DNA of 64,000 nucleotides from Liolophura sinensis (lineage: Eukaryota > Mollusca > Polyplacophora > Chitonida > Chitonidae). The position numbers and the translations under genes are program-made. Shown in pieces: positions 4,172 to 26,275 of the stretch. Location of the stretch: contig NC_088302.1 of assembly GCF_032854445.1 (NCBI RefSeq), positions 19,835,338-19,899,337 on the forward strand. Reading direction: 5' to 3'. Below the pieces are notes generated by a model. It was not told where the DNA came from, made no database searches, and worked only from the letters and a program-made list of their open reading frames with translations. Within the stretch, counting starts at the first letter, position 1, and each line of letters starts with the position of its first letter.

Positions 4172-4247
4172 AGTAACCTATCATCAGATGAATAATACCT
4201 GAGATGGTATCAAATCAAAACACATAATTCAGTGAGCGTTAGATAAG

Positions 4248-5269: not shown

Positions 5270-5469
5270 CACCATATCAACACATTTGGTTGATGATCCT
5301 GCACCATATCAACACATTTGGATGATGATCATGCACCATATCAACACATTTGGTTGATGACCCTGCACCATATCAACACATTTGGATGATGATCATGCAC
5401 CATATCAACACATTTGTTTGATGATCCTGCACCATATCAACACATTTGGATGATGATCATGCACCATAT
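5270..5469. repeat. 31 bp minisatellite (62 bp higher-order) just past the GBA2 stop
   Basis: The block 'caccatatcaacacatttgg' recurs every 31-32 bases. Alternate copies end 'ttgatgatcctg' and 'atgatgatcatg', giving a 62 bp higher-order period. It begins within 50 bases of the GBA2 stop on the 3' side, so it probably lies in the 3' UTR. Confidence 0.9.
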
Positions 5470-5514: not shown

Positions 5515-5883
5515 TTAATCCGGTTTGAGCCCAATACTGATGTTGTCAAGTAATGCAGTGCTATCACTGTCTCCCTCAGCACTGCCAGTGACCTCTGCGA
5601 CAGGGCTCAGTTGTATGGTACCTTCCATGAGAACGTCTGGCTCTCCACCACCATCCAGCTTATCACGGATCGTGGGCTTGTCTCCGATACCAAACAGCAG
5701 CTGTGGTTGCCATGTTTGTAGCGCCCACTGTATGGCCCAGATGGCCAGGGGCCGCATGTAGCCCAGGGAGCGGTAACATCGACTCTCAAAGTAGGCCTCG
5801 GGAGTCTGGAACGCCAGGCCCATGTGTTCGTAACACATGTGGTAAGGGCCACTGGCAGTCCGGAAGCCTTCCTCTACCATACC
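5515..5883 (-). CDS. GBA2: GBA2 exon 17 (residues 776-897 and stop)
   Basis: Encodes [20 protein letters not shown], then [20 protein letters not shown] and [15 protein letters not shown] with E804 and R813. A poorly conserved acidic, serine-rich tail ends in TAA. That the tail lacks recognisable conservation is normal for the family. Confidence 0.96.
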
Positions 5884-8800
5884 CTGTACAAACACATACC
5901 AAATGGTGATTCAACTTGTTGGTTGGTTACGTACATGGGCTATTATTACAGTCACTTTTAACATTATGCCATATTCTTAGTGCTGCCTAACTGGAAAGCC
6001 ATACCACACACACCACACCTGTCACAATAATTACACACTGGCACCAGGCTGGCCAGCACTTACCCTAATTCTTTAATCTTTTCTACCACCAATATTTTGA
6101 AACATTCTGACAGAGCTATGGTCTGTAGAGAAATAATCTGCACAGTTTTATGAAGCTTGCATCTTTAGTGATGCTAACAAATCATTTTTGTGTCATTTTA
6201 ATAATAATTGTATGCATAAATTCCACTGAAAAAAGTGCTCAAGAGGTCGAAATGGTTGAAGATTTACAGCAAATCATCCCTTTAGGTTGAGCATTAAGTG
6301 ATAGATTAAATATCGGAGACAGGCTCAAGGACATATCCAGATGGCTCAATATATATTCATGTGATTAGTTACTAACGTTTCATACCACAACACACCGATA
6401 AGCTTACCAGAAACTGGATCATGAAAAATGGCATGGCTTGTAAACAATTCAGATTTTAAAACCTTTTTTCTTCTTTCACTTTAGTTAAACAAGCTCGAAT
6501 TTGCAACAGTTGTGATATCAACCTGATAGGCATTCGTGTCATCTTGCACTGAGGCCCTTGGTTAAGTGAATGGCCCATGTTAATAGATGGCAAGCCCGTA
6601 TTAAAAGACAGAATGTCAAACATTTGACTGACCAACCAACAAAACAATAAACAGAACAAACAACAGAACAACCACCTTAAAAGCAGATTAGTCACAACTA
6701 AAAATGGTTTATAGAATGACCCTTTGTGGGCATATGTGCAAAGTTCCCTCCCTTCTTACCTCCTGGATCATGGTAGCTGCTAATGCATACGTTGTCCCCA
6801 CCCAGAACTCATCCGACTGCACGCTGGATAGATCCTTCTTCCCATTGGGTCTCATGCCATTGATGGCTCCCATTTTACCATTGGCAAAGGACATCACATT
6901 GGTCTCATAGATGACCTTCAGAGCTGAATGGATGAACTCAGAAGGGAACACCTACATGTAAATGTACAAAAAGACAAAGAAAATACAGTTATTTAAAAAG
7001 GACAAGTTTAAAGGTGGAGAAAACATAAAAATTAAATTAAGTTCACATAAATGAGTGCAAAAAGTTAGTTGTAAGGGTGGTCTTCAATATTTTTTTTCAA
7101 TTTTTCTTTAAAGAGAATAAAAAAAACAAAAGAATAATTTTTGTATGGTGGGTATTGGGGCCACCTTTTGGTACCATGCATGGTGTCTTGGCATAATAAT
7201 GTTATAAATGAGGACATAATACATGTTTAATAAATATATCTGCACTAGAATTTGATCTTTTCAGCTAACAAATGTGTTCAATCTGGGTTCTGATCATGTT
7301 TATATTTTCAATATATTCATAAATATTATCATAATTATGTCTTATGTTTTTCTTCTCCTTTAAAGTAAGTTTTTCACACAGATATATCTTTATGACACTC
7401 TCATAGATTTCACTCATTTGTGACTTAATTCTGTATATAATATTTGATTTCATAAACATATCAAAACAATGTTCAACTCATTGGGCTTGCATGTTCAGGT
7501 ATAGTTTCACGAATATGAGAAAATAGGGAAAATGACTACAACATGCAGGTGTAGATATCTTTACAAAAGCTTGTTTCATGTCTGCCATCACATTGCCATA
7601 GTAACTGCTCTCATTGGTGAATATTTAGCTTATCTGTTCATCCTGGAGTTTAGCTGCCTTGAGGAACCATGGACCACACACCATGTCTGCCATGATGCTG
7701 TCATGGTAACTGCTCTCATTAGAGAATATTTAGCTTACCTGTTCATCCTGGAGTTTAGCTGCCTTGAGGTACCATGGACCACACAACATGTCTGCCATGA
7801 TGCTGTCATGGTAACTGTTCTCACTTGCGTCGTAGTTGTAATAACGACCTGCATTGAGGAAGTAGAATAAAGCTTTGTCAGTAAACTTGAACAGCATTCC
7901 TTAACCATTATGTATTTACATCATCAGAAAGTTAATAATTTTCCTTGGAGTAATTTGAGACTAACATACATGTACTTTGTGATTTGAAACAGAAAAGTTT
8001 ATTCAAATTTGGAGGTTAAATTTGGATGTAATTAACTCTTGGTTTCCCACCAACCAACTGAATTATGCGGCACTGTTTTACATCATAAACAACTCATGTG
8101 TCATGTCTATAGGTATAGATACCCAATTGTTTGATTTGAATTTTTCACTCACAAGGGTAGTCAGTTTTATCAATGGAGGAAACTCACGACAATCTTGAAC
8201 ACCCTATATTTTTAAAAATTTTAACAATGATGAATCCTGTAGAAACTGGCATATTCTAAGAAGATTTTAATGTTCAGAAACATTTACAACATACCTCCGT
8301 AAAGCAATCTGAGGCCAGTTGTTCAATAGTGTATCAAAGTTCAAGCCAGGCTTAAATCTTAATACGTCTTATCCTAATACAACGTAAATGGCCTTTTAGT
8401 CTACAGAAAAGTTAATACTGAACCCAAGTCCTAATACTTGGTCGAACAACTAGGCCCTGCATTCAATTTTGATCATGCATGTAAAATGGTTGAGAATGAA
8501 GAATATACATGCATATGCATTATCAGGTACCATTCCACAACTTTTCGCTGAAAGATTTCTTGCCACGGTCCAGAATTTCCTGATACTTAATGACATCTTC
8601 ATGCTTTTCCAACAACAGGCCGATCTCTACCATCATACGCACTGCAGTCAGCCATATGCCTCCACAGTATGCACTGTCAACCCAAACACAATAACAACAA
8701 CATTATTCTGAGCAAAACCATGACAAAATTACTTTCACTGTCATTGGGAAGATTGTACATTTGGGCAATGTGACTGAGTCATAAGCCTCCACAGTATGCA

Positions 8801-11800
8801 CTGTCATACCAAACACAATAACAACAACAACATTATTCTGAGCAAACCATGACAAAATTACTTTCACTGTCATTGGGAAGATTGTACATTTGGGCAACGT
8901 GACTGAGTCATAAGCCTCCACAGTATGCACTGTCACACCAAACACAATAACAACAACAACATTATTCTGAGCAAACCATGACAAAATTACTTTCACTGTC
9001 ATTGGGAAGATTGTACATTTGGGCAATGTGACTGAGTCATAAGCCTCCACAGTATGCACTGTCATACCAAACACAATAACAACAACAACATTATTCTGAG
9101 CAAACCATGACAAAAGTACTTTCACTGTCATTGGGAAGATTGTACATTTGGGCACGTGACTGAGTCATAAGCCTCCACAGTATGCACTGTCAATCCAAAC
9201 ACAAACAACATTATTCTGAGCAAACCATGACAAAATTACTTTCACTGTCATTGGGAAGATTGTACATTTGGGCAACGTGACTAGTCATAAGCCTCCACAG
9301 TACGCACTGTCAACCCAAACACAATAACAACAACAACATTATTCTGAGCAAAAACCATGACAAAATTTACTTTCACTGTCATTGGGAAGATTGTACATTT
9401 GGGCAACGTGACTGAGTCATAAGCCTCCACAGTATGCACTGTCAATCCAAACACAAACAACAACAACAAATCTTATTATTCACAACAAAACAAGACAAAG
9501 CTGATTTCAACTGTTCTTGATAAGAATGATAATTTGGGCTATACGACTGGCCTTCAATCAGACATAAGCTCTAGATTATTTACATGGGGTTTAACTTTCC
9601 ACAAATAACTCATTACTTATTATATAACACTGTTGACAGAAACTACCGAAATTTTATTCTTATCAAAGTTGTACAAAAGCCAATTTTACCAGCTTTCTCT
9701 TTGGCTACCCTTTAAACGATGGATTCACAAAATTATTTGATTATAGATTTACAAAGTCACACATAGCATTGTCAATAAATGTTTGATATTTTTATGATGA
9801 TTTGCACACACGGTAAATCACCTAATTTTTCGCCCTGAAAATCTGAATGAGTTTATTTATTTATTTATTTATTTGATTGGTGTTTCCACACCATTACAGG
9901 TTCACTGTAATATTATTGTTATTTTGTGATAAATGGGAGTTTGGGAGAAAACTCTGTTAGGAACTATTACGCATGTGGAGTGTCATGTCAAATATCCATT
10001 TTTAAACTCCGTATACGAAGCTGTAGCAGAATTTAGCGCACCACAAATCCATACATGCAAACTAGGCCTAGCAGCAGACAAGATGAAGATGTCAAATTGC
10101 GATTAAAACGACACCTACACATAGGCATTTGCACCTTTGCAGCAAAACATTTCTTGCTCATTTTGGCGTAATTTTCATTTTTGGCCCATATTTCGTAAAC
10201 AGGAATACTTAATTTACTTAATATTTAATCTCTGAGTGCCCCCAGAGGATATTTAGTCATACGGATTAGTTTTATCTGCATGCACATACAATCACTTACA
10301 ATCACAGACTTGAAATTTCCATGTGTCTACCTATTTTTGCTGGCAAAAGGCAAAACAATAATTTTATCCGTTGCTGGCAACACGTAAAATCACGTCTGGG
10401 CAAAACTGTATACAGGAAATCATAAGAAACATTCTGTTTTTAAAACCAGCGACAGTGTAGTGCGAACTCCTAATGTGATAACAAATACTGTCTTCGATAT
10501 GCCCAGGCTTGCACACAGTGCTACTGAAAATGGATAAAAATAAATTGTGGTACTTTTCGGAAACCTTGCATAGAGTATGTTTTCAAGGTTTCAAATCTGT
10601 CATCAGCTTCCTGTGCCCATGTAATTCCAATGTATTATGTCAGTCTACACACACATTTTGTTTCTTTACAGTTGGAACTGTCCTCCTATTGCAGAAGCGT
10701 TCATTTTCCTGCGTGTTTATATTTCAGCAGACAACCGTAGGCCTAACCAAAATAATCAGTTCATCAGCAGTGCACTGTGCAGTTACATTCCTTGTTTGAT
10801 GTGGTCATGCTTTCAGACAGTGTAAGAAATTCAAAGGTTTGTAAGAGAACATCACCTGTCTTAGTTCTTTCTTAGATTTTCATTTATGTGTATATTTAGA
10901 GAAGTACATGTAGGCCTACTAGTCGGGAGACCTGCACACGTGGATGTCAGTGACTTGACCCCATGTGGCAAGGATTACAAACCAGAGTGGTTAAGAGGCA
11001 ATGCAAGGTAATGAAACTGGTGGAGGGGCTAATCACTCACTTCTGTCATCTTACTGCCGTGCGAAGGCAAACTCACATGCGAAACTTTAGGTAATTTACC
11101 GTATATATTACTGACTTTTTACCAGTTTTACATTAGATGTAATTACCATATCTACAAAATTCTGAATAAGTTTGTTGGAAATGCAATTATGCCACAAAAA
11201 TTTATCATAGTGTTACAAATAACACATTCATACTGTAGTAACATTACCTTTACCACATAAAAAATGACTTGATAAACAAGATAAACTGTTAACAACTTTT
11301 GACTTTTTATACCTGGCTCCCGTTGACATCCAGCCATCATAAGTCTGGTCAGGAAAGCCTCCATTGTCAATGACACCGTCATTGTCTGTGTCCCACTGTA
11401 GGGAGTAGTCCATCACAGCCTGGGTAAGGGAATGAACACAGGTTCAGGGACAAAGCTGCTGTGTACTTACAGTGCTGGAAGCCAGGTCTAAAATTGTAGC
11501 TGTGATGATCTAGATAGGTATGGCGTCAATGAATGCTATAAGTGAACATTGAACACTTTTCAAAATAGTGTTGAAATAAACAGTTAATTAAATTCTCAAC
11601 AAGGAAATAAAACAATCTGCTTTGCTAATCATATTTCTAACATATTACTTCTAATTTCTACTGCATATGAAGACTAAGACTGACAGCCTATTTATTGTCT
11701 GCCACATAAGCCCTGTGCACCTGTCCAACGGTCCTGTACACCTGCCGCATAGTCCTCGTACACCTGTCACACAGTCCCTATACACTTGGCTGCTTCATAG

Positions 11801-14800
11801 TCCCTGTACACCTGCCACAGTTCCTGTACACCTGCTACATATTCCCTGTACACATTTTACGTCGTCACTGTACACCTGCCAAATAGTCCCTGTCTCACTG
11901 TCTCACAGTCCCTGTACACCTGTCACACAGTAACAGTGCACCTGTCACATACTGTAGTCCCTGTACACCTGCCATATACTCGCTATGCACATGTCCCTAT
12001 GCACCTGTCTCACAGTCCCTGTACACTTGTTACACAGTAACAGTACATTTATCACATACTGTAGTCCCTGTACACCTGCTAAATAGTCCCTATGCACCTG
12101 TCTGACAGTTCCTGTACACCTGTCACATAGTAACAGTACATCTGTCACAAACTGTAGTCCCTGTAGTCCTCAGCAGTACCTGCTGACTTACCCTTATCAC
12201 TGGATACATGTCCCCTTAGACAGTCCACCTTGCTGAGAGCAACATAGTCCCTGTACACCTGCCTTACCTGTTGACTTATAGTGACCACTCTATACATGGC
12301 CTTTGAAAGTCCACCTTGCTGAGAGCAATATAGTCCTGTATATATTTCACATAGTCCCTGTATATATTTTACATAGCCCCTGTACATCTGCCAAATAGTC
12401 CCTGTACACCTGTCTCACAGTCCCTGTACACCTGTCACATAGTAACAGTGCACCTGTCATATAGTCCCTGCACACCTGCAGTACCTCTTGACTTACCCTG
12501 ACCACTGGATACATGTCCCTTAGATAGTCCACCTTGCTGAGAGCAACAAGGTCCCTGCACACCTGTCAAATAGTATAAGTACACCTGTCACAAGGTATAT
12601 ATCCCTGTACACCTGAAGTACCTGCTGACTTACCTTGACCACTGGATACATGTCCACTAGGTAGTCCACCTTGCCGAGAGCAACATAGTCCCTGTACACC
12701 TGCAGGACAAACTTCAGGTTGAGGTCCTTCCACATGTACGTGGGGTGTATTAGGTAAGCATTCACCTGTAGCCATGGCTCATTTTCTGGAAAACACAAAC
12801 CACCTGGCTTGAATGATATCAACACGTACATCATAATAATCAAGGATAAGAATGGCAATTGAAAAAAAAAAAATGAAAATATTTTATATTCCAAATGGAA
12901 CGAGTACCCCTAGTGAGTTAACAAGCAACATAAATGAGGGAGGGTGAGCATGAGAGAGGGGCTTTCCTCCTTCCTTGCTGGTTGAATATTTTGCATGTTT
13001 TCATTATGGTAAGATGTGCTGAGACAGCATTTCAGTCTACTAACCTATATGCTTTTGTGTGTGCATGAGTTCCACGATTGCCCTTGCTCCCTTCTACTCC
13101 CGTAATTGATCAGATCAGAACAGAGAGAGCACATGACTTTACCACGCATGTAAACTTTTTTTTGTAAATGTCATAAAATAGTCAGCATACAACCTGTTCC
13201 CAACGCAATATCACTTCAAGGCTTCTTAGTTACGTCTACAACAGAGCCCGGTTACTGCTGATATAGAGGAATATGCAAAGTGCAAAGAAGTCTCGCGTGA
13301 AAGGAGGTAGTAAAGCACCATTAATGGATCAAGCCCTCACCCGCTTTGGTTTGCACAGGCTGTGTAGCAGACAGGAAGAAAGTAAGATCTAATTGCCCTC
13401 ATACGAAACCTACAAGCCACCCCTCCCCCCCAAAGTTTTATTACAAATTTAAATGAATCTCAAGAGTCATATTTTTTGCTAGAACAAGTTGGAAATCTGT
13501 GAATCTGTGAAAAATTCTCATCCCTGAGTAAATGTGTTCAACCGGGTCCCTGATGCCATGAAGACTTGTGTCAGTAATATATTTACCTGGGTATTTATTG
13601 TAAGAAGACTTGTGTTAGTAATGTGTTTACCTGGGTTCCCAATATCATGAGGACTTATTATGTTTACCTACATGTGGGTGCTTTATGTCATGAGTGAGTG
13701 GTGAGTAAGCTGCCCCACCAGAGCCGTTCTACTGATACGGGTCAACCAGTCGTTGCACTATCCCCTTACTGCTAAACGCCAAGCATAACTACAACTCCCC
13801 CTTTAAAAGTCTTATATGTGACCCACCACCCCTGAAGCAGACGTTCTACCAACTGAGCCATCTGGGCCGTTTCCCTACGTCATGAAGACTTGTTAGTAAT
13901 GTGTTCAGCTGAGCCCTGATGTCATGAAGATTTGTGTTAGTAATGTGTTTAACTGGGTCCCCAATAGCATGAGGAGGTCTTAATAATTTGTTTAGCTGGG
14001 TCCCTGGGTCCCAAAAATTTGTCAGCAACATTTCTGTAACTGGGTCTTTGAGGTCATTAAGGCTTGTTAGTAATGTGTTTATCTGGGTCCTTGAGGTCAT
14101 TAAGAGTTGTATTAGTGATGTGTTTACCTGGGTCCCCAATGTCATGAGAATTTGTATCAGTAGTGTGTTTACCTGGGTTCACAATGTCATGAAGACTTGT
14201 TAGTAATGTGTTTTGTACATGTACCTGGGGCCCAGATGTCATGAAGATTGTTAGTAATGTATTTACCTAGGTTTCCAATGTCACCAAGGCTTGTTAGTAA
14301 TGTGTTTACCTGGTTCCCTGATCTCTTGAAGGCTTGTTAATAAGGTGTTTACCTGGGATCCCGTTGATATAAAGACTGGTGTCAGTAATGTGTTTACCTG
14401 GGTCACAAATGTCAGAAAGACTTTTTAGTAATGTGTTTATCTGGGTTCTTGATATCAGGAAGACTTATGTTAGAGATGTGTTACCTGAGCCCAGTTGTTC
14501 AAATTGTTCGGGTTATTATTAGGGTCCACACTAGTGTGGTAGAGAGACACATCTTGAAATCATTTGGATTATTAAGGGTCCATGCTAGTATCTTAACGGG
14601 ACACCTCTTGAAATTGTTCTGATTATTCTCCTTAGTCAACTCGTAAAAATGCAATATCTCGAAAAGGTAGTTTTGAATTTTATTGATAAGCTAAAAAAAT
14701 CTTCTGCTCCAAAAAGGCTAAACCTATCAAGATACACCTTTAATTTATATATATTGTAAAAACTTTTAGTTCAGTATGCAAATAAGGCCAAAACTGACTA

Positions 14801-17800
14801 ATGCATTTGACTCAAAAATAAATTTATTTTTAAAACCGCTTAAAATCATTAAACAATCACACTGCCTGGTGCTCCTTGAAATCACAATTACAAATCTGCA
14901 AGAATTATGTTTGTACTTGGTGTTGTTTTCATGAGGGAAAAAAATTGGACAAAACCGTCCTATGTAAGTAACACAGAAGCTTTGTGCTAGACTGCATGGA
15001 ACCACTGATTGCAGTTGAAAGTGGCAATGGGCATCAGCTCTGCAACAATGTGTTCCTTCTCTCTTTTGTGGTCGGCTATCAGCAGAAGATCAAAGCCGCC
15101 TATTCTCTATGCTAGTCTTCGTACTTGGCCAACTGTAAATGATGCCTGGCAATCTAGGGTTCAATTCTATTACATTCCTTTCCATTTTGTTTTTCCGTGT
15201 TTTTTTCCACTATCATAAACTTTACAGACATCAGATTACCAGAAGTTAAAAGTCTAGTACTATGGACCCTGGCCATACAGTTCGACACCAGCTTTAATTT
15301 CTATTTGAAATTTTAACCAACATCAGCAGTAAATGTAATTATCCACTCAAAGTATAACAGCAGTAGATTAAGTTCATATTTATTTGACTGTTGCATAATT
15401 TTGCTGGCAGCAGGTACAAAACTGAAGACTTGGCTTAAAGTTAAATCTAAGATTAAGTTTTAACACAGTTTTCAATAACATGGCCCAGAGTCCCTGACTG
15501 AGTTCCTGACTTGTGACAGTAATGTATTCAGCTGGGTCCCTGATGTGATGAAGATTTGTGTCAGTAGTGTAATTACCTGGGTCCCCCAAGTCATGAGGGA
15601 CCACGCTGTGAGGTTTCAGAGGTTCCGTGTGGCCAGTAAACAGGAACTTCACCTGGCGCAAGTCTTCCTGCATTATCACTTCAGCTGAAATAACAACAAA
15701 CAACACTTCTAAGCCAATGAAGAGCAGTCTGGAAATAAACACAGCGAGCTTTGTTATTACATCCTGTTGAGACAAGGCAAGAACATCACATTTAAAATGA
15801 CATTATGACAATCAGTAGATTATGTTATGTAATATGTATTATGGGGACCTTAATACAATGCAATATGCCCATAATCCTTTTCCACAGACTAATTATTTGG
15901 TTGTTTGGTTAATTAGTTATTTGAATGACATGTGGTTGGTTAGTCAGTTATCCAAAAATCGAAAAAAAAATAAAATAAAATAAAACTAAAAATCCATCTT
16001 TTCATTTTTCAAATCTTAATATGGTTATAATTTTCCTGTTTTTTTCAAAGCCTTCTGATCCGGTGGGACAGTCCACTTTTCCCACAAATTAGATAATTGT
16101 AAAATTTAATTTCTATTCTTATATCCTCCTCTGACATTGGAAAAAGATATTTTCAGCTGGTAAAACAAGTATTTAAATTGGTTCAGCCTAATGGTCCTAA
16201 TTACAAAAATATAATCTGTTAATACATTATACTTTCGGAAGGCCCTCTGAGAAATGCATTAATCTCCAGAACCCGATACCACTCACATCACAGCTCTTTT
16301 GCCTTTCAATTCGTGTCAAAATGATGTCAATTTTGAGTTGGATTCTAGCTTCATACAGAAGCAAATACACTGCTGTATTAATCTGAATCAACAGTTGACA
16401 ATGTTGAAGTTCCAATTCATGACAATGACAGCAAATGTACAGGTTAGTTCAGGTTATGAGTTTTTCAGGCCAAGAATCTTTGGCTCTTATATGTATTTCC
16501 AGCAGCACTAGAAATACTGTCTGAAGACCTTGCATACAATCTACTGTTTTTAGTGAATTAAAGTCCTTATTTTTCTTCCCAGACACCCTTGCGAGAGTAT
16601 AATGTTTAAAGAGGTTATACTGTTAGTAATTCTAAATCTGTGCACTAATTCTGCAAGGCGAATAAGCCAGCGAGAGTCCTCAGGTTTGTAAGACTTACCA
16701 AATTCATACTGGATACACAGCTGTAACATGGGCCAAAGCATGGTGAGGGCAAAGGAGGCATAATGGTGGACATCATAGGTGTTGTACATCCTATACTCAT
16801 GGCCTGGTGACAGAAAACATACAGAGTGTATTGTCATGACGGAAAACACACCAAGTGTATAGTCATGCCAGAAAACACAAGGGCAAGGAGAGAGAAAAGG
16901 AGGCGTAATGGTGGACATCATAGATGTTGTACATCCTATACTCATGGCCTGGTGACAGAAAACATACAGAGTGTATTGTCATGACGGAAAACACACCAAT
17001 TGTATGGTCATGTCAGAAAACACAAGGGCGAAGAGAGAGAAAAGGAGGCGTAATGGTGGACATCATAGATGTTGTACATCCTATACTCATGGCCTGGTGA
17101 CAGAAAACATACAGAGTGTATTGTCATGATGGAAAACACACCAAGTGTATAGTCATGCCAGAAAACACAAAGGCGAGGAGAGAGAAAAGGAGGCGTAATG
17201 GTGGACATCATAGATGTTGTACATCCTATACTCATGGCCTGGTGACAGAAAACATACAGAGTGTATTGTCATGACGGAAAACACACCAAGTGTATAGTCA
17301 TGTCAGAAAACACAGAGGCGAGGAGAGAGAAAAGGAGGCGTAATGGTGGACATCATAGATGTTGTACATCCTATACTCATGGCCTGGTGACAGAAAACAT
17401 ACAGAGTGTATTGTCATGACGGAAAACACACCAAGTGTATAGTCATGTCAGAAAACACAAAGGCGAGGAGAGAGAAAAGGAGGCGTAATGGTGGACATCA
17501 TAGATGTTGTACATCCTATACTCATGGCCTGGTGACAGAAAACATACAGAGTGTATTGTCATGACGGAAAACACACCAAGTGTATAGTCATGTCAGAAAA
17601 CACAAGGGCGAAGAGAGAGAAAAGGAGGCGTAATGGTGGACATCATAGATGTTGTACATCCTATACTCATGGCCTGGGGACAGAAAACATACAGAGTGTA
17701 TTGTCATGACGGAAAACACACCAAGTGTATAGTCATGTCAGAAAACACAAGGGCGAAGAGAGAAAAGGAGGCGTAATGGTGGACATCATAGATGTTGTAC

Positions 17801-20800
17801 ATCCTATACTCATGGCGTGGTGACAGAAAACATACAGAGTGTATTGTCATGACGGAAAACACACCAAGTGTATAGTCATGTCAGAAAACACAAAGGCGAG
17901 GAGAGAGAAAAGGAGGCGTAATGGTGGACATCATAGATGTTGTACATCCTATACTCATGGCCTGGTGACAGAAAACATACAGAGTGTATTGTCATGACGG
18001 AAAACACACCAAGTGTATAGTCATGTCAGAAAACACAAAGGCGAGGAGAGAGAAAAGGAAGCGTAATGGTGGACATCATAGATGTTGTACATCCTATACT
18101 CATGGCCTGGTGACAGAAAACATACAGACTGTATTGTCATGACGGAAAACACACCAAGTGTATAGTCATGTCAGAAAACACAAGGGCAAGGAGAGAGAAA
18201 AGGAGGCGTAATGGTGGACATCATAGATGTTGTACATCCTATACTCATGGCCTGGTGACAGAAAACATACAGACTGTATTGTCATGACGGAAAACACACA
18301 AAGTGTATAGTCATGTCAGAAAACACAAGGGCAACGAGAGAGAAAAGGAGGCGTAATGGTGGACATCATAGATGTTGTACATCCTATACACATGGCCTGG
18401 GGACAGAAAACATACAGAGTGTATTGTCATGACGGAAAACACACCAAGTGTATAGTCATGTCAGAAAACACAAGGGCAAGGAGGGAGAAAAGGAGGCATA
18501 ATGGTGGACATCATAGATGTTGTACATCCTATACTCATGGCCTGGTGACAGAAAACATACAGAGTGTATTGTCATGACGGAAAACACACCAAGTGTATAG
18601 TCATGTCAGAAAACACAAGGGCAAGGAGAGAGAAAAGGAGGCGTAATGGTGGACATCATAGATGTTGTACATCCTATACTCATGCCCTGGGGACAGAAAA
18701 CACACAGAGTGTATTATCCCAATGAAAAACACTTCAAGTTTAATATCATTACAGGAAACACACTGAGTGTACTTCCACGATGGAAATCACAAGAGCATGG
18801 TGAGGGCAAAGGGGGGCATAATGGTGACATGCTTGGTAACTCAATAAATCAATTTCTAAACTGGAATTCTTGGAGCCAATGTTATAGAACAACTGGAAAC
18901 ATGATGCTGCATCACTCATACCCCACATATGGTTAAAAGGCAAACCGGACTTCAGGTGACACGAGCGGAAATAGCAGAGTTCCTGGGTTATAGAGATGAC
19001 CCATTTACGTCTGACTGATCAAAACTGATAACATGGAATTGCTTTTGATTTTCGCAATTTGTGCAATGTGCTTCCAATCAAATTGCAATATCTTGGTTGA
19101 GCAACATCCTAAAGACATAAAATTATGCTTTTTAAAACTTCCTGTGGGTATACTTCCTCGCTTGGCATTCAGCATGAAGGGGATAGTGCAACGACTGGTT
19201 GACCCATATCAGTATAATGGCTCGGGCGGGGCGGCTTGCTTGCCTTCGGTAAGTCGTCTCAGTGAAGCAGCACTAAATAAAAGAGCGGTGGAAATCCGTC
19301 CTGCAACAAGGAGGCACATTACACGTACATGCACCCTAATGATTCCTTCGTCGTCATATGACTGAAAAATTGTTGAGTACGACGTTAAACCCCAAGCACT
19401 CACTCACTCACTCACTCCTGTGGGTATAATTTATCAATGCATGTATACATTTGGCCTGGTGGTGCACTGGTCAAGATGTACACGTACTTCAGTTCATCTG
19501 ATACACATGAAACACATTTCTCTCAACACCATAATCTATAATGTATCTGGTAAGCCCTGTAACTTAAACACCTACCTTCCAGATAAGCAAATTTGCCATA
19601 CTCTTTGATGTGTGGATAAAATGGTTTGGCTTCAGTTTCACTGTCTGTCACATCAGAGAAATCATCTATGGGGTCTACCCATACCGTGCCTCCATCAGTG
19701 ATGAAGTACAACTCATTGAATAGGGCGGATTTATACCAGTTTGGAAGTTTGCTGCAATTGAAGAGAAAATAAGATATCCTGGTCATTTTGGTACCTAAAA
19801 CATACCATTACACGTGTAACTTGCTCTGTTCACTGTATAATATAGAATTTTTTTTTTTGATTTTTTTAGATTGATGTTTTACGCCGTACTCAAGAATATT
19901 TCACTTATACGACGGCGGCCAGCATTATGGTGGGTAGAAACCGGGGGAAACCCACGACCATCCGCAGGTTGCTGCAGACCTTCCCACTTACGGCCGCAGA
20001 GGAAGCCAGCATGAGCTGGACTTGAACTCACAGCGACCGCATTGGTGAGAGACTCCTGGGTCATTACGCTGCGCTAGCGTGCTAACCAACTGAGCCACGG
20101 AGGCCCCGTATAATATAGAACTCAATACTCAAGAATTTTTCACTTTCAGGATGGTGGCGAGTTGTATGCGTAGAGGAAAGCATCGTCCGAGGCTATACAT
20201 GTACATCAGTGATGGGCGACACGATAAGTTCTTGTGTGACATAACATCAGGCAAAACTGTAAGCAACAGAAAACTTGTGTTTTTGTGCAATCGTTCCAAA
20301 CTAGTGGAAGCGGTATAAATACCAATAAAACTGATTATAATTTAAGGGAAGAATCCAGATTATCTTGATCCTCTTTATTCAAAATATATTTTGAAGCACA
20401 AAGTCTTGGTAAATGGAGTAGGTCTGCAAGTTACATGTATGAAGCAGTCTGATATCTGTTTAACACATATATTAGATCTTTCCTTACGGATTCTGTAAGA
20501 TGGGACTTTGCCAAGCTTCAATCTTTTCCTCCCAAAATGGATAATGTTTGAAACAATGCCTGGCTAGGTCTGGAGAGGCATTTCCTTCTGTCCCAAACCA
20601 TCTGGTATAGCGCCTATACCAATGAAAAAAACACATCAATATAGTAATATCTTTGATTGATTGATTATTGTTTAATACTAAAAACCTTTTTTTGCTTATA
20701 GGATGGTGGTCAATTCTATGGTTGAGCAAACCAGTGTTTGGAACAAACCATTGACACCTGTTACACATAACACATAATATAATATATAATATATCTGAGG

Positions 20801-23800
20801 CATCAAAATATATTACAGACAACATGGACATTCATTTATTTTATTTATTTGATTGGTGTTTTACGCCGAACTCAAGAATATTTCACTTACACGACTGCGG
20901 CCAGCATTACTGTTTGAGGAAACCAGGCAGAGCCCGGGGGAAACCCACAACCATCAGCAGGCTGCTGACAGACCTTCCCATGTATGGCTGGAGAGGAAGC
21001 GACATTGAATATCAATATTAATATGAATAAATAAATGTTATTTTCATAAATTTCAGGCAAATGGTGGTTAATTCAGCTAAGGATTTGCATCGTCTATCAG
21101 CTTCTGACCAATGAGGTTGCAGACTTGAATCCACCTCTCCCTACTGAAGTTCTGCTGCGACTTTAAGGCAGAAGGCTTCTTCCACCCATGAGCTTTTTTT
21201 TTTAGAAGAACCTCAGTTTTTCATTTCATTGCCTATAAAGACAGAAAAAGTACTGCTGTTTATTCACGCACATTCTGAAAGCATTATTCTGTGTAGACTG
21301 GTAAAAACACACTTTTTGTGAAGCCCAGAAACTGGCCAATCCAATCAAGGTAGTTGTGGCTTCAAAATCAAATTAAAAATGTGCATAAATTGCACTGAAA
21401 GCTGCTCTTTCATATACAAAAAGCTCGAGAAATTAGGGTATTACAATATGAATTTCGCACTGGTCAAGATGTGTAGATGAAGCAGCAGGATTCTCTGTAC
21501 AGAGACAAAGTAATGATAAGATACTGTCTCAGAGAGAACAGTGTTTCTGGTTACTTTTCTTAGTATACCTGCATACCTTGCATAGCGTTTGCCGTTAGCA
21601 CCAAAATGAATGATGGGCATGTCCCATGTAAGGCACATTTCCACCTGCCCTGTGGAGTGAGCTTTGACAGTCCTCAGCCCACACACAGCCACGCCTACTT
21701 CCTCACTCTTCACAGTTCTGTTCTCTGAACCTTGAAAAAGACAACAACAAAAGTGATCCTCTACCCAATTTTAGTATGTACATGTATTTACAAAAACCTT
21801 AATGTAGAAATTACATTAAAATATACAAATGACTCTCATGACTTACATTTACCAATAACACCTTCCATGAAGTATATTTGCATATACATGATGTCAAAAG
21901 GGAAATTAGTTTTTCTGTAATTTTTAAACAATTTTAAGCATTATTTTTTTATATATTTGAAGAGTGAGTGAGTGAGTGCTTGGGGTTTAACGTTGTACTT
22001 AACAATTTTTCAGTCGTATGACGAACATAGTTGAAGAAGACAAAAAACTAGCGGGCTTTCTCCATGCGAATAAGCAATGTCCTAGACGTGTTTTAAATTA
22101 AACTACAAATTTTTAACTAAAGCTAAATCTTCAGCTAACAATGTAGTCATGACTATGGTAACCTTATAAATTCAACAGCACTGGAATGTATTAGAAATTT
22201 TACCTCGTGGTGTGCCTGGTTTTAGGCTGCCATTTTGCCACAAGTCCGACCACAACTCATGCCCTGAACCTTTGGGATTAAATGACAGCTTATGGCTTAC
22301 ACTCACACCATCCTGAAAGCAACAACAACGACATGAATCATCTGTGTCAGATTTGTAAAGTATTATGAAAGGAACCCAAATAGATTTATTTATCTGGTTA
22401 GTGTTTAATGTCATATCCAAGAATTTTGTAGGACATTTTGTCAGAATTAGTTAAGGACACTGCGCCCAGAAAGAACCAGGGTTCTTTACCCGGTACAGAA
22501 CAATTGTCCAGACTAAAACCACTGAGATTTATATATCCATTTATTTGATTGGTGTTTCATGACATGCTCAAGAATATTTCACTTATACAACAGCAGCCAG
22601 TGTTACGGTGGGAGGAAACCGAGGGAAACTTACAATAATCCACAGGTTGCTGCAAGACCTTCCCACATACGGCCCAAGACGAAGTCAGTATGACCTCGAC
22701 TTGAAATCACTAACCGCTAACCGCATGGGCCCCGAAGGCCCGAAAACCACTGAGATGTAATTTATAATACTTGATTGTTGTTTAAAGTCAGGCTCAAGAA
22801 TTTTTCACTTATACATGTTGTGCTGAGTAAACCACCGACCTTCATCAAGTACCTGACAAACCTTCGGACTCATAGCCACAGCCAAAACCGCAAGAGCTGT
22901 ATTTGAACACGCAACCTCATTGATCAAATATTCACTGAGATATAATGGGGCATGCCTGGACACAACATAAGTGTCCAGTGCAACATGATCCCCTCACATC
23001 CTAACTGCGCAAGCTTCAAGCTTTGTTCACAATATTTTCCCTTTACAGTAACTGCAGACAACACACATTTTTTCTATTAACCTCAAGTCAGAAACTTATA
23101 GTCAGAAACTGTGATATTGCACAGTGACAAAACTGCAGACATCCTACCCTTTGAGCTGCTGAGACACCATATGTACATGGCATGTGTTTGAACTGCTGAT
23201 GAATCATGACCCCAGATGCTGTAGACCCCTCACTGATGAATGGCTCGGTCCAGGCCCCACCAATTCCATCCTCCTTTGTCCCCAAACCATTTTTAAACGT
23301 GAATGTTACACTGACATCCACATCCTCTTCTCCACTGTTCTCAACTTGCCAAATAAACACAGCCACTGGCAGACATGTGTCCTGTCAAGCCACAAGAGTT
23401 GTAAATGAAACAAAACTTTGAATCAATTCTAATAAACAAGGACTAACAATTTTGTTCCATTATGCCCTGCAAAATTAATTTTAATAATATCTTTTTACTT
23501 ACTTCAGTTTTTTAGGTATAAGTAAACATGTAACACTGTATAAACCATTTATATATTGAATAAATAGATGTTAGTGAGCAAGTTAAGTCTGTAGATTAAA
23601 AGTACATGTACATGTCCTGGATCAACTATCCCCAGCTTTGTTGAACTCCACACTACAAATGTGTTTTTTTTTGGTACAGTGCATTTTATACAAACCTGAT
23701 AATCATGGGGGAATACTGGAGATATTTGACGACAGATGAGACGAATGTTTTGCTCAGGGATATCATACACAGTCCAGGACCGTGGGTAGAGACCTTGGTA

Positions 23801-26275
23801 GACACCATGAGAACCATTGTAATTCCACTGCCATGCGTTGAGATGACTTTTATTCTGAGGTTTGGATGGAGAGAGGACTTGCTGATAGACAGTCTCTCCC
23901 TTACGCCGGACACACACGATGAACTGTAAGCACAAAATCACGACACTTGGATGTTATGAATGATTTGAAGAAATAATGATGATGGATTACTCAACACATG
24001 ATGCAGACAATCAAGTGTCTTAAGTTTATTACAACTTCCAAAGCAGCCCAAATATGGACATGTTCTGGCGAAAGTATTAGTATCACTATACGGTCAGTAT
24101 TTTCCCCTACACTCAACACTGTGACATGGAGACTTGGCAATACCCACAGGGTGGGGGCTCTCGCGAACTAACGTAGCTAAAAGGCAAACACCAATCACCT
24201 TGTAGGTCATAACTGCACATGTGGAAGTTTCAAATTTTGTTGGCTCACATGAGTCTTGCTTGTCAGGAATGACATAGCCATGGTCACGAATGATGCATAA
24301 TAAACGTAGCACACTGCTACGACATCATGTGTTCAAGTTGTTTCTAAATGGGTAAAATTTGTCAAATACACCTGACACAAACGAACATTTCACAATCTGT
24401 CATTTCAAATTATGGTGGGTATTTCTTCGCTAAGATATTATTATTACTTACATGTCTATCAAGTCATAACATCTACCCATACCCTAAACGACATAAAATT
24501 TTGCCAACAAAAGTACATTTTAAGAGACAAATAAATGCCACAAAATATTATTTTCAGTACTGAAACTTACAATTTTCCAGCAGAATATCATTCCATGCTC
24601 TGCACAAAGCTCTCTAAAACCTACAGAGCTCTCAGAATCCGGAAAAAAGAGCAAGTTAGTCATGGACAAAATTTGTGGTCATTTAGGGATATTCATGGCA
24701 CACATGGGCAAAACTGTCTGATCCCTGCATAATACTGGACTTCCAAATGTGGATCTACCTGATTGGCCACAATAACTTCATGTTCATACATGCCAGGGAT
24801 CATCTGGTAGCGACAGAATTCCCCTTTATATCCTCGCCCAATAGTGCCACATCCAAGGCCACCAATTGGAACACCTACAGGAAAACATACAGGATTAAAA
24901 TAAACACATTTAAATACAGGAATTCAAAATAGTGGCTTTATACACCATATTTATATTACTTGGTTATTGGCAAAATTATTGTGGAGAAATACAAAGAAAG
25001 ACCCAATCTTGCTGTAAATTAACAAGGCTTACACACCAAAAAGCTTGTTACTTCATTAGCAAACAATATAAAGATTTTTTTAGTAATCTACATTGTAGGT
25101 ATCTAAAATATCACAAGCAGTAAAAGAATATGTATATATAAATGCTTGGGTTTTTATTTATAGGCTACTTAACCGCTTTTTAAGTCAACTGTAAATACTG
25201 TGCCTTCCTGAGGAAGGGCGAGTCCAGGCAGACAAAGTGCTGCCACCACTGTAATATCATGCCAGACAATATGACGCCCCACACAGTTACATAATACTGA
25301 CATCAAGCCAACCTCTCAGTGCTGAGCGTCATTCGAGGCAGCAACAAGTACCATTTTTAAAATCTTTGGTATGGCCTGACCCGGCAAAATGATGCCAGTA
25401 TGTATGAGCATGTACGTGTAAGCATGGGGCATTAAGCTTACCGTATATTGGAGAATGTGGAATCTGTCGTAAATTATCAATAAATGGCCTTTTCCCTTCT
25501 ATCTTTTTCAGGAGCCAAAACCAGATATACCTGTAATGAAAGAATAAACGAGTCAGATATGAAGACTGTAATGTGACCAAATAAATCAAGATACAAGATA
25601 GTACAATTAAACATTTCCAAGATTTTGTGCCAGTTTTGTGCCAGCAACAAAATTTCAGTTGCCTGAAATCTGATCTGTTATCACTGGTCATAGGCACAGG
25701 GCAAAATGCGGTGGTACAACAGATATACATGCACTGAATCAATAGTGATGTGGTTAAACCATTATCCTGGGTGCATGCAGTTATTCTTGATGGGTAGCCT
25801 ACTGTACATTCATGTATGTAACTACATCTAGTAAGACATGGTCAGGTGCAAGTAGGTACTGGTCCACATAGGTAGTTTTTTTTGGCAGTGAAAGAAATCC
25901 TCCTGATATGACTGTGTGTCAATGAGTGGACAACTTTATATTTGGTAGTTTCTGGTGCTGCATTTGTTTGTTGTTGAGTCACTTATTCCTCTGTTCATTG
26001 TAAAAAGCAGGTTTTCAATAAAAGTGAATGGGCTACGAACAGCATCATAAGCTTTAAAACTTCCATTTATTTTTTTTAACCAAACGCCTCACTAATTACC
26101 TGAGTCCAAAAAAGAACATCTGGATCACTTGTTTTAGTCGAGGACTGGTCCAAGGTTTACAACTTTCCGGACTGGAGTAGTCGATGGCGACCCTCCATCC
26201 GTAATCTGGTAGTCCTGGTATGGGTTCTTTGGGTTGAGTTGATCCTATACAATCCTCATACACAGTTCGACCCAT
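5515..26275 (-). CDS. GBA2: GBA2: non-lysosomal glucosylceramidase (GH116), complete, 17 coding exons
   Basis: GBA2 hydrolyses glucosylceramide to glucose and ceramide at the cytosolic face of ER, Golgi and plasma membranes. Coding exons, 5' to 3' on the minus strand: 26275-26100, 25530-25442, 24874-24759, 23923-23696, 23381-23148, 22312-22204, 21730-21577, 20613-20488, 19751-19576, 16803-16699, 15684-15577, 12785-12634, 11419-11313, 8673-8531, 7848-7739, 6951-6760, 5883-5515. All introns are GT..AG and the phases join to 897 codons plus stop (human about 927). An in-frame TAA lies five codons upstream of the ATG, so the start is firm. Residues expected from GH116 structures are present: nucleophile E469 (YLEG), D480 (YNTYD), H535 (PHDLGDP), acid/base D619 (DQTYDGW), and E804 and R813 ([14 protein letters not shown]). 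Nucleophile to acid/base is 150 residues, as in human GBA2. The promoter is shared with divergent RGP1. Introns 9, 11, 12, 13 and 15 carry arrays built from exon-junction copies. The UTRs are not resolved. Confidence 0.97.
6061..6270 (+). mobile_element. MITE-like element family 1 in GBA2 intron 16
   Basis: Same family as 2519-2737. It starts 'taccctaattctttaatc' and ends 'ggttgaagatttacag', with shared interior 'cacagttttatgaagc' and 'attccactgaa'. Confidence 0.65.
6760..6951 (-). CDS. GBA2: GBA2 exon 16 (residues 712-775)
   Basis: Encodes [20 protein letters not shown], then [31 protein letters not shown] and IQE. Phase 0 at both ends; donor GAG|GTAAGA. Confidence 0.96.
7578..7825. repeat. 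Exon 15 junction array, about 105 bp, 2.4 copies
   Basis: The 3' part of GBA2 exon 15 with its donor region occurs three times: the real exon, and copies around 7682-7740 and 7578-7635. The first extra copy still reads like exon (..AAKLQDEQ), but its donor is AG|ATAAGC instead of AG|GTAAGC. 'catgtctgcc' recurs at 7578, 7682 and 7788. Confidence 0.9.
7739..7848 (-). CDS. GBA2: GBA2 exon 15 (residues 675-711)
   Basis: Encodes [20 protein letters not shown], then [17 protein letters not shown]. Donor CAG|GTAAGC. Two further partial copies lie on the intron side; the nearer has a mutated donor. Confidence 0.95.
8531..8673 (-). CDS. GBA2: GBA2 exon 14 (residues 627-674)
   Basis: Encodes [18 protein letters not shown], then [17 protein letters not shown]. 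Acceptor GACAG|T. The acceptor and first 16 exon bases are repeated through intron 13. Confidence 0.95.
8658..9468. repeat. Exon 14 acceptor array, about 128 bp, 7 copies
   Basis: 'gcctccacagtatgcactgt' (minus strand: acceptor plus the first 16 bases of exon 14) recurs at 8658, 8785, 8914, 9043, 9171, 9291 and 9423. Only the 8658 copy continues into exon 14. The others continue into a shared intron unit with '(aca)n' and 'cattgggaagattgtacatt'. On the minus strand each decoy would read AYCGGL then TGA. Confidence 0.95.
9852..9890 (-). mobile_element. SINE family A tail scrap with (ATTT)n
   Basis: 'gtttatttatttatttattt' followed by 'gattggtgttt' matches the extreme 3' end of family A. The rest is unrecognisable. 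Confidence 0.4.
10740..10890 (+). repeat. Dispersed repeat shared with 44588-44740
   Basis: 'ggcctaac..a.ataatc.gttc', 'ttacattccttgtttg', 'atgctttcag' and 'ctgtcttagttctttctt' recur in the same order near 44.6 kb in KGD4 intron 1. The family is unidentified. Confidence 0.6.
11313..11419 (-). CDS. GBA2: GBA2 exon 13 (residues 592-626), acid/base
   Basis: Encodes [19 protein letters not shown], then [17 protein letters not shown]619 in DQTYD corresponds to the GH116 acid/base aspartate. Codon 627 is split after two bases. Confidence 0.96.
11700..12480. repeat. Minisatellite derived from GBA2 exon 12
   Basis: Many 20-30 base units of the type 'catagtccctgtacacctgt' fill intron 12. On the minus strand this is the exon 12 segment encoding QVYRDY, so the minisatellite appears to have grown from the exon. 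Confidence 0.85.
12180..12552. repeat. Exon 12 donor-side copies, three
   Basis: Besides the true exon end at 12634, the 3' half of exon 12 with its donor side is seen at about 12490-12550, 12186-12258 and 12263-12330. Each has 'agtccaccttgctgagagca'. The first two keep 'ggatacatgtcc' and a GTAAG donor preceded by a changed base; the last is more degraded. Confidence 0.88.
12634..12785 (-). CDS. GBA2: GBA2 exon 12 (residues 541-591)
   Basis: Encodes [17 protein letters not shown], then [18 protein letters not shown] and DMYPVVK. Donor AAG|GTAAGT. The 3' half with its donor is copied downstream in intron 12. Confidence 0.96.
13540..14490. repeat. Exon 11 donor-junction minisatellite, about 44 bp
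   Basis: 'gtgtttacctgggtccc.aat' and 'gtcatgaagacttgttagta' recur every 40-47 bases, about 15 times, interrupted by a SINE at 13.7-13.9 kb. A further unit lies at about 15510-15560 beside exon 11. On the minus strand the unit reads HDIGDP followed by G|GTAAACA, the end of exon 11 plus its donor. Confidence 0.9.
13688..13870 (-). mobile_element. SINE family B, diverged
   Basis: Minus strand: tRNA-like head ('ggcccagatggctcagttgg'), then 'cacatataagacttttaaa', then 'gatagtgcaacgactggttg'. It interrupts the exon 11 minisatellite. Confidence 0.7.
14491..15510. other. GBA2 intron 11, non-repeat part
   Basis: No exon or known repeat seen. Includes diverged edges of the exon 11 array and AT-rich sequence. 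Confidence 0.5.
15577..15684 (-). CDS. GBA2: GBA2 exon 11 (residues 505-540)
   Basis: Encodes [16 protein letters not shown], then [13 protein letters not shown], with active-site histidine H535. The donor junction CAG|GTAATT is the template of the minisatellite in intron 11. Confidence 0.95.
16699..16803 (-). CDS. GBA2: GBA2 exon 10 (residues 470-504)
   Basis: Encodes [19 protein letters not shown], then [15 protein letters not shown]. It is the only copy in the exon-10 array that continues into the full GBA2 sequence and a consensus donor (TTG|GTAAGT), so it is the functional exon. Confidence 0.96.
16740..18830. repeat. Exon 10 acceptor array, 145 bp, 14 copies
   Basis: 'tcatggcctggtgacag' (minus strand: acceptor CACCAG|GCCATGA of exon 10) recurs at 16801, 16946, 17091, 17236, 17381, 17526, 17671, 17814, 17959, 18104, 18249, 18394, 18539 and 18684, nearly all at exactly 145 bp. 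Only the first copy is the full exon. Decoys keep about 70 bases of exon, then diverge; in the spliced frame they read [14 protein letters not shown] then TGA. The 17814 copy has lost its AG. The far end (about 18796-18835) again resembles the true exon interior ('agcatggtgagggcaaagg'). Confidence 0.96.
19153..19416 (+). mobile_element. SINE family B, 5'-truncated, with 12 bp TSD
   Basis: Starts inside the body ('cttcctcgcttggcattcag') and ends in the family tail with (CACT)n. It is flanked by perfect 'cctgtgggtata' duplications at 19141-19152 and 19417-19428, showing retroposition into GBA2 intron 9. Confidence 0.92.
19576..19751 (-). CDS. GBA2: GBA2 exon 9 (residues 411-469), nucleophile
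   Basis: Encodes [19 protein letters not shown], then GGTVWVD and EYGKFAYLE. The last complete codon is the presumed nucleophile E469; its following glycine is split across intron 9, the intron with the 145 bp array. Confidence 0.96.
19848..20107 (-). mobile_element. SINE family A, full length, with 13 bp TSD
   Basis: Full family A element in GBA2 intron 8: tRNA-like head at the right end ('ggcctccgtggctcagttgg'), T-rich tail complement at the left. Perfect 'gtataatatagaa' duplications lie at 19835-19847 and 20108-20120. Confidence 0.93.
20488..20613 (-). CDS. GBA2: GBA2 exon 8 (residues 369-410)
   Basis: Encodes [19 protein letters not shown], then [15 protein letters not shown]. This is the linker into the (alpha/alpha)6 catalytic barrel. 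Donor TCC|GTAAGG. Confidence 0.95.
20831..21003 (-). mobile_element. SINE family A, head missing
   Basis: The tail and body of family A ('gattggtgttttacgccgaa', 'agcccgggggaaacccac') are present. It stops at 'ggagaggaagc', before the tRNA-like head. Confidence 0.82.
21577..21730 (-). CDS. GBA2: GBA2 exon 7 (residues 318-368)
   Basis: Encodes [17 protein letters not shown], then [19 protein letters not shown], the conserved 'WDMP..FG' end of the N-terminal domain. Codon 369 is split after two bases. Confidence 0.96.
21961..22026 (-). mobile_element. SINE family B tail fragment
   Basis: 'gagtgagtgagtgcttgggg' followed by 'tttaacgttgtacttaac' is the complement of the family B 3' tail. Confidence 0.75.
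22204..22312 (-). CDS. GBA2: GBA2 exon 6 (residues 282-317)
   Basis: Encodes [11 protein letters not shown], then [14 protein letters not shown]. The final G codon is split after one base; donor GAG|GTAAAA. Confidence 0.95.
22529..22742 (-). mobile_element. SINE family A, diverged, with 14 bp TSD
   Basis: Degraded body and head ('gggccccgaaggcc') in GBA2 intron 5. 'aaaaccactgagat' flanks it at 22515-22528 and 22743-22756. Another tail-like scrap lies at about 22381-22440. Confidence 0.8.
23148..23381 (-). CDS. GBA2: GBA2 exon 5 (residues 204-281)
   Basis: Encodes [15 protein letters not shown], then [13 protein letters not shown] and GGAWTEPF. Phase 0 at both ends; donor AGG|GTAGGA. Confidence 0.96.
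23696..23923 (-). CDS. GBA2: GBA2 exon 4 (residues 128-203)
   Basis: Encodes [18 protein letters not shown], then [15 protein letters not shown] and [10 protein letters not shown]. This is the N-terminal beta-sandwich domain typical of GH116. Confidence 0.96.
24759..24874 (-). CDS. GBA2: GBA2 exon 3 (residues 89-127)
   Basis: Encodes the family signature [20 protein letters not shown], then [13 protein letters not shown]. Acceptor CTGTAG, donor CAG|GTAGAT. Confidence 0.95.
25442..25530 (-). CDS. GBA2: GBA2 exon 2 (residues 59-88)
   Basis: Encodes [19 protein letters not shown] and continues to SPIYG. Acceptor TTACAG, donor ACG|GTAAGC. It matches the GBA2 segment before the first glycine-rich strand. 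Confidence 0.95.
26100..26275 (-). CDS. GBA2: GBA2 exon 1 (residues 1-58)
   Basis: Starts MGRTVYEDC and encodes the N-terminal region ending in QMFFFGL. The donor is CAG|GTAATT. Codon 59 (R) is split after two bases. Confidence 0.93.

What the first reader, a model, noticed from the sequence alone, without database searches (positions are those of the whole stretch)
6700..18830. At least five GBA2 splice junctions have seeded tandem arrays
Introns 9, 11, 12, 13 and 15 each contain tandem copies of the adjoining exon edge plus its splice site. Acceptor-side arrays (exons 10, 14) lie upstream of the exon and donor-side arrays (11, 12, 15) downstream, so the working exon is always the edge copy. 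Unit lengths differ (44, 105, 128 and 145 bp, plus irregular for exon 12), so these are separate events in one gene. I know of no described precedent for so many in one locus.
Basis: partly seen in the sequence, partly recalled or inferred. Interest (0 to 1): 0.9.

Follow-up and report, generated by a model that had tools for sequence, protein, structure and literature searches.

The report
Splice-site "mirage" repeats in a mollusc
Five exon edges of what looks like a mollusc's GBA2 gene have been copied, splice site included, into tandem repeats inside the neighbouring introns; the same was seen at about four percent of the exon edges sampled elsewhere in this genome, and a like phenomenon called "mirages" is on record from lancelets, so it is real but neither unique to this gene nor without precedent.

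Summary
GBA2 (17 exons, minus strand, open 898-codon frame) has intronic copies of exon edge plus splice site at 5 of 32 junctions: acceptors of exons 10 and 14, donors of exons 11, 12 and 15. The other 27 show none. "No precedent" fails: such boundary duplications are known in lancelets as "mirages" (passages in PMC3087553, PMC3902484). GBA2 is not special either: in 33 other gene stretches (250,532 bases), 12 of 290 predicted junctions carry them, 15 of 390 with newly predicted exons. The host looks like a mollusc (haemocyanin); my capped searches listed no mollusc report. Arrays are about as frequent in eight arbitrary stretches (9 arrays; 0.23 against 0.24 per kb). Junctions are caught slightly more often than intron points (4.1% against 2.7%, P about 0.1), so chance seeding plus tolerance suffices. 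Donors exceed acceptors (10/150 against 2/140, P=0.036): suggestive. Most donor decoys keep GT, and using the nearest intact decoy would break the frame in 14 of 17 judged arrays. So splicing presumably picks the exon-edge copy, most likely by exon definition. No RNA or reads were available.

The parts
5515..26275 (-). GBA2 (GH116 glucosylceramidase) gene, 17 exons, coding sequence rebuilt
   Evidence: open 898-codon frame (stop included) with GT and AG at the chosen junctions; Pfam PF12215 and PF04685
16699..16803 (-). exon 10, working copy
16804..18837 (-). acceptor-side array of intron 9: 13 copies of acceptor plus up to 69 nt of exon 10, period 145, and one degenerate copy at 18794-18837
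   Evidence: unit found only here in the assembly
15577..15684 (-). exon 11, working copy
13540..14487 (-). donor-side array of intron 11: copies of about 20 nt of exon 11 end plus donor plus about 23 nt of intron, period about 43; a further copy at 15520-15551. Junction-spanning hits run from 13619 to 14421; the start at 13540 is read by eye
12634..12785 (-). exon 12, working copy
11699..12565 (-). donor-side array of intron 12: three copies of about nt 83-150 of exon 12 with the donor position (12180-12262, 12268-12340, 12489-12565) among 22-bp repeats that resemble the exon interior
   Evidence: unit found only here
8531..8673 (-). exon 14, working copy
8674..9469 (-). acceptor-side array of intron 13: 6 copies of acceptor plus about 24-35 nt of exon 14, period about 129
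   Evidence: unit found only here
7739..7848 (-). exon 15, working copy
7577..7738 (-). donor-side array of intron 15: one full copy (7634-7718) of exon 15 nt 26-110 plus donor region (GT changed to AT) and a partial copy (7577-7613), period 105

Best explanation
These are mirage-type minisatellites. In this genome short segments (about 20-150 bp) are often duplicated in tandem and then expanded and homogenised in place. Some seed segments happen to span an exon edge. If the copies lie on the intron side, the exon and its own splice site stay whole, so the change is tolerated and the array can grow. The spliceosome keeps using the copy at the exon edge, most likely because exons are short and introns long, so splice sites are paired across the exon and the nearest pair wins (exon definition); the other copies are decoys with no needed function. 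Shown here: exon origin, local origin (three units), edge position, occurrence in other genes, near-chance frequency, many intact decoys. Inferred: the duplication mechanism, use of the edge copy in RNA, and exon definition as the reason.
For: Copies carry exon letters and splice site at 5 of 32 GBA2 junctions. Units of exons 10, 14 and 12 occur only in their own array. Direction exon to array: the working exon 10 has a Thr codon where all 13 intronic copies printed have an Ile codon, and a GH116 enzyme of known structure aligns a Thr there. Homogenisation: the 13 intronic exon 10 copies average 97.2% identity to each other, 93.7% to the working copy, over 100 nt (one array only). Other genes: 12 of 290 predicted junctions in 9 of 33 stretches; 15 of 390 in 12 of 33 with new predictions. 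Frequency near chance: 82 of 3000 random intron points, counted with each array reduced to one unit and both flanks searched, against 12 of 290 (P 0.10-0.12). Arrays per kb: 0.243 in gene stretches (61 arrays), 0.234 in 8 arbitrary stretches (9 arrays). Decoys: GT intact in 95 of 111 donor copies, AG in 21 of 36 acceptor copies, and 108 of these 147 copies are intact and score at or above the 5th percentile of this genome's own sites (20 arrays); an alignment-based count of 17 arrays gave GT 86 of 96 and AG 32 of 35. In 14 of 17 arrays that could be judged (of 20) the nearest intact decoy would shift the frame or bring in a stop. In lancelets RT-PCR and Adh3 data suggest mirages do not disturb splicing (passages, PMC3087553), and in long introns splice sites closest across the exon are preferred (abstract, PMC9225289).
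Against: No RNA was examined; decoy use is not excluded. Donors are hit more often than random intron points (10 of 150 against 82 of 3000, P=0.011), and with the ascertained GBA2 and RGP1 added all junctions together exceed chance (P=0.027), which pure chance seeding does not predict. Decoys are not always intact: AG survives in 1 of 15 copies in L028 and GT in 7 of 18 in L012, so some may have been selected against. Three arrays (L014, L019, L031) would give an in-frame, stop-free extension, so some could have been taken into use. The comparison with arbitrary stretches rests on 9 arrays.
Confidence: 0.7

Rival explanations
1. Seeding or survival is directed by splicing: arrays are born preferentially at donors (for example where transcription and U1 binding expose DNA), or acceptor arrays are removed by selection because an upstream decoy acceptor is transcribed first and harms splicing.
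For: Donors 10 of 150 against acceptors 2 of 140 (Fisher P=0.036); donors against random intron points P=0.011. With newly predicted exons 12 of 200 against 3 of 190, P=0.033; with GBA2 and RGP1 added 15 of 221 against 5 of 212, P=0.038.
Against: All surveyed junctions together are not clearly above chance (P 0.10-0.12). GBA2 itself has 3 donors and 2 acceptors. The sample is small, the three donor-acceptor tests share data, and junctions are predictions.
Confidence: 0.2
2. The arrays are kept for a function: alternative exon ends, splicing control or protein variants.
For: Many intact decoy sites; three arrays would give in-frame, stop-free extensions, such as the 66-nt unit of the CCT gene in L014.
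Against: 14 of 17 arrays that could be judged would frameshift or stop, including all four judged GBA2 arrays; unit lengths and exon shares vary widely; the exon 15 decoy donor is broken.
Confidence: 0.05
3. Assembly artefact: misjoined or falsely expanded repeats.
For: No reads were available; copy number in the near-identical exon 10 array could be off.
Against: Within arrays copies differ from each other (TRF 63-97% matches in the five GBA2 arrays) and periods are irregular. Exon-edge arrays appear in 12 of 33 other stretches and repeat arrays in 6 of 8 arbitrary stretches.
Confidence: 0.03
4. A mobile element carrying splice sites (introner-like) inserted at several places.
For: Several junctions in one gene are affected.
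Against: Each array matches its own junction and no array of the gene matched another junction above the null; the three units searched match nowhere else in the assembly.
Confidence: 0.02

Closest known systems
Mirages of lancelets (Branchiostoma Adh3, globins BflGb6 and BflGb9, troponin C, PGBD5)
   Same: Minisatellite-like tandem copies spanning an exon-intron boundary, at 5' or 3' boundaries, units of about 10-160 bp, many but not all units with AG/GT, interior copies homogenised and cluster edges not (passages, PMC3087553; passage, PMC3902484).
   Different: Reported there gene by gene in cephalochordates; here probably a mollusc, five in one gene, with a sampled frequency, a chance control and a donor excess. 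RNA, haplotype and somatic data exist for lancelets, not here.
Introns from tandem arrays and intron gain by tandem duplication (Rogers model; human internal tandem repeats)
   Same: Duplicated segments carrying splice signals; a possible next step for the arrays seen here (passages in PMC2812944; only listing with start of abstract for PMC4974935 and PMC2891723).
   Different: There the duplication makes a new intron. Here no new intron was shown; the copies lie inside existing introns.
Tandem dual-specific splice sites of polyubiquitin (UBC)
   Same: Tandem array of splice sites in one gene (passages, PMC10809524).
   Different: Those lie in coding repeats and serve as both donor and acceptor; these are intronic copies of a single donor or acceptor.
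Polymorphic intronic minisatellite of abalone TSSK1-like (Haliotis discus hannai)
   Same: Mollusc gene with a 27-bp intronic minisatellite that varies between individuals (passages, PMC6905558).
   Different: The passages do not say that the unit includes an exon edge.

Membership tests
Mirage (exon-intron boundary minisatellite) | Tandem copies that span an exon-intron boundary | tested here: met
   5 of 32 GBA2 junctions
Mirage (exon-intron boundary minisatellite) | Both donor and acceptor boundaries can be affected | tested here: met
   GBA2: 3 donors and 2 acceptors; survey: 10 donors and 2 acceptors
Mirage (exon-intron boundary minisatellite) | Many but not all copies keep the AG or GT signal | tested here: met
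   GT 95 of 111, AG 21 of 36; GT 86 of 96, AG 32 of 35 by another count on 17 arrays
Mirage (exon-intron boundary minisatellite) | Interior copies more alike than the edge copy (concerted evolution) | tested here: met
   exon 10 array only: 97.2% against 93.7%
Mirage (exon-intron boundary minisatellite) | Regular splicing not disturbed | not testable with these tools
   no RNA data
Mirage (exon-intron boundary minisatellite) | Copy-number instability between haplotypes or in somatic cells | not testable with these tools
   one assembly, no reads
Introner-type mobile intron | Same element at many unrelated loci | tested here: not met
   three of the five units searched; they match only their own array in 609 Mb
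Intron gained by tandem duplication | A new intron whose two splice sites come from the two copies | not tested
   ancestral intron positions were not compared

The most novel reading that the evidence does not exclude
In this genome the arrays record a direction rule of splicing: extra copies of a splice site are tolerated downstream of a donor but mostly removed upstream of an acceptor, so that a large set of natural decoy-donor arrays (perhaps thousands, by extrapolation from the sample) tests exon definition and supplies raw material for new introns and exons.
Probability: 0.3. Interest if true: 0.75.

Novelty: new member of a known kind. Interest (0 to 1): 0.5.

Why it matters
If the sampled rate holds, about four percent of splice junctions in this genome carry near-identical competing splice sites. 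That is a large natural experiment on how the spliceosome picks one of several like sites, and on whether such arrays are the nursery of new introns. It also takes mirages out of lancelets, so they may be common wherever minisatellites are frequent.

Tried and rejected
Rejected: a dispersed element; GBA2 as a special gene (its 5 of 32 against 12 of 290 gives one-sided P=0.018, but GBA2 was picked for this feature, so that is no test); enrichment of arrays in genes (coverage 14.7% against 9.4%, per-stretch test P=0.86); a test of splice-site decay in decoys by an anchored profile, which mixed registers (40 'copies' where exon 10 has 13) and is not used; breakpoint microhomology, looked at by eye for exon 15 only and not separable from the repeat itself.

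Limits of the survey: the regions were not random. I picked 33 stretches dense in Pfam exon matches from five families (myosin, TCP1, M1 peptidase, kinesin, GH31), covering 163 of the 369 matches listed; for L031 I had already seen a tandem exon pair in the list. Junctions are predictions: 290 of 326 had a scorable site. A first test flagged 15 of 282. Of 16 flagged of 290 I dropped 4 (three from whole-exon duplication in L003 and L031; one wrongly placed donor in L014) and kept one L014 acceptor after moving it to the true edge. Of 58 new predicted exons, 8 lay mostly inside arrays and were left out of the denominator. Of the 19 junction flags I kept 3 (L009, L012, L028), judged by eye; the 16 dropped were pseudo-exons inside arrays (L010, L014, L028), one more copy of the duplicated L003 exon, and one real-looking L005 exon with a single weak 19-nt match; counting it would give 16 of 390. 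Anything at the ends of stretches or missed by the predictor is not counted.

Literature: nine searches ran; their lists are capped, and I saw titles and starts of abstracts. None of the listed items was seen to report exon-edge arrays in a mollusc. The one abalone paper among them (PMC6905558) describes an intronic minisatellite, not an exon-edge one, in the passages I read. The founding lancelet paper (Nucl Acids Res 2002, PMC117041) is not held; I know it only through passages and the reference list of PMC3087553.

Recalled, from no call: the names GBA2 and RGP1 and their neighbourhood in other animals, the human proteins used in my head to recognise exons, that PF14830 marks molluscan haemocyanin, that the top myosin chains are squid and scallop, and that the GH116 structure is bacterial.
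Full report
WHAT IS THERE. The window holds a GBA2 gene on the minus strand. I rebuilt 17 exons between 26275 and 5515; they join into an 898-codon frame (stop included) with GT and AG at every chosen junction, and the protein matches both halves of the GH116 family (PF12215 and PF04685). For each of its 32 splice junctions I compared 30 nt of exon plus 12 nt of intron with the adjoining intron, using the 15 other introns as the null. Five junctions have copies above the null maximum: the acceptors of exons 10 and 14 and the donors of exons 11, 12 and 15; 27 have none. Exon letters alone find the copies for exons 10, 12 and 15; for exons 11 and 14 the shared exon part is too short for that test.

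WHERE IT COMES FROM. Searching the 609-Mb assembly with one unit of the exon 10, 14 and 12 arrays finds only the arrays themselves and their exon edge (14, 7 and 4 matches). They are local duplications, not a mobile element; the units of exons 11 and 15 were not searched. In exon 10 the working copy has a Thr codon where all 13 intronic copies have an Ile codon, and a GH116 enzyme of known structure (recalled as bacterial) aligns a Thr there, so the exon kept the old state and the array drifted. The 13 intronic copies average 97.2% identity with each other but 93.7% with the working copy over 100 nt, as expected if copies inside an array are homogenised while the edge is held by selection.

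NOT ONLY GBA2. I took 33 stretches (250,532 bases) around exons of five protein families elsewhere in the same genome, with 163 exon cores. Of 290 predicted junctions (150 donors, 140 acceptors) 16 were flagged. After dropping three due to whole-exon duplication and one misplaced donor, 12 remain: 10 donors and 2 acceptors, in 9 stretches. A coding-potential predictor recovered 112 of 163 cores and gave 58 further exons (14 predictions on the opposite strand as a false-positive gauge); 8 of the 58 lay mostly inside arrays, and among the rest I judged three flagged edges real (L009 and L012 donors, L028 acceptor). That makes 15 of 390, in 12 of 33 stretches. One weak further candidate (L005) was left out. 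The neighbouring RGP1-like gene has 0 of 11. GBA2 is at the high end but was chosen for it.

CHANCE OR TARGETING. In the gene stretches 14.7% of bases lie in arrays with period 20 or more, at 0.243 arrays per kb (61 arrays; median stretch 5.0%); eight arbitrary stretches (38,400 bases) have 9.4% and 0.234 per kb (9 arrays, in 6 of the 8; per-stretch test P=0.86). As far as this small sample shows, arrays are as common outside the chosen genes as in them. When each array is reduced to one unit, 82 of 3000 random intron points have copies nearby (2.7%), against 12 of 290 junctions (4.1%; P 0.10-0.12). No special attraction to splice sites is needed for the total. Donors, however, exceed acceptors (P=0.036) and random points (P=0.011). 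That could mean birth at donors, or removal of acceptor arrays. I rate it suggestive only.

HOW THE GENE LIVES WITH IT. Across the 20 arrays (5 in GBA2, 15 in the survey) a test blind to the dinucleotide found 147 copies; GT is intact in 95 of 111 and AG in 21 of 36, and 108 are intact and score at or above the 5th percentile of this genome's own sites. Two arrays yielded no copies under that test, and in L028 and L012 most decoys are broken (14 of 15 and 11 of 18). An earlier alignment-based count on 17 arrays gave GT 86 of 96 and AG 32 of 35. For the 17 of 20 arrays where it could be judged, using the nearest intact decoy would shift the frame or bring in a stop in 14. The exceptions include a CCT gene whose 66-nt unit keeps the frame open. 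So the edge copy is presumably the one used for most transcripts. The likely reason is exon definition: in long introns, sites closest across the exon are preferred (abstract of PMC9225289), and GBA2's array-bearing introns are 787-2791 nt. This step is inferred; no RNA was available.

WHAT IS KNOWN. The globin paper on lancelets (passages read, PMC3087553) describes tandem repeats spanning exon-intron boundaries, named mirages, at both 5' and 3' boundaries, with many units keeping AG/GT, length variation between haplotypes, somatic instability at Adh3, and data that suggest regular splicing; it proposes them as a source of new introns. A second paper adds troponin C and PGBD5 (passage read, PMC3902484). 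The present genome looks like a mollusc: it has eight matches to a haemocyanin beta-sandwich family, recalled as molluscan, in one 11.4-kb stretch, and of two muscle myosin exons tested one is nearest to chains recalled as squid and scallop, while the other ranks vertebrate cardiac myosin first and does not tell. Among the capped lists of my searches I saw no mollusc report of exon-edge arrays; an abalone gene with a polymorphic 27-bp intronic minisatellite is the nearest (passages, PMC6905558). I therefore file it as a new member of a known kind, with a first sampled frequency as far as I could find.

Noticed in passing
window 27985-37480, + strand: Upstream neighbour looks like RGP1 (name recalled); its last intron holds a 1.5-kb array (35210-36727) in which no exon match was found.
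   Followed up: partly
window 48411-49109: Partial second copy of the RGP1-like last exon (49017-49109, 85% identical) near an array that by eye resembles the one in RGP1's last intron; looks like a duplicated fragment.
   Followed up: no
window 3794-4176: A 185-bp segment duplicated in tandem at 98%, downstream of GBA2; also an array of 32/64-bp units (5269-5469) just after the stop codon.
   Followed up: no
L014 1560-2620 (CCT/TCP1 gene, minus strand): Donor array of ten decoys at an exon end; the nearest 66-nt unit keeps the reading frame open, so a longer exon form is possible.
   Followed up: partly
L003 1696-2887 and L031 8854-9221: Whole-exon duplications: three similar copies of a myosin head exon (1696-1800, 2189-2284, 2792-2887), and two similar GH31 exon matches 44 nt apart.
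   Followed up: no
G000 C8:37880506-37891931: Eight haemocyanin beta-sandwich domain matches in a row on one strand.
   Followed up: no
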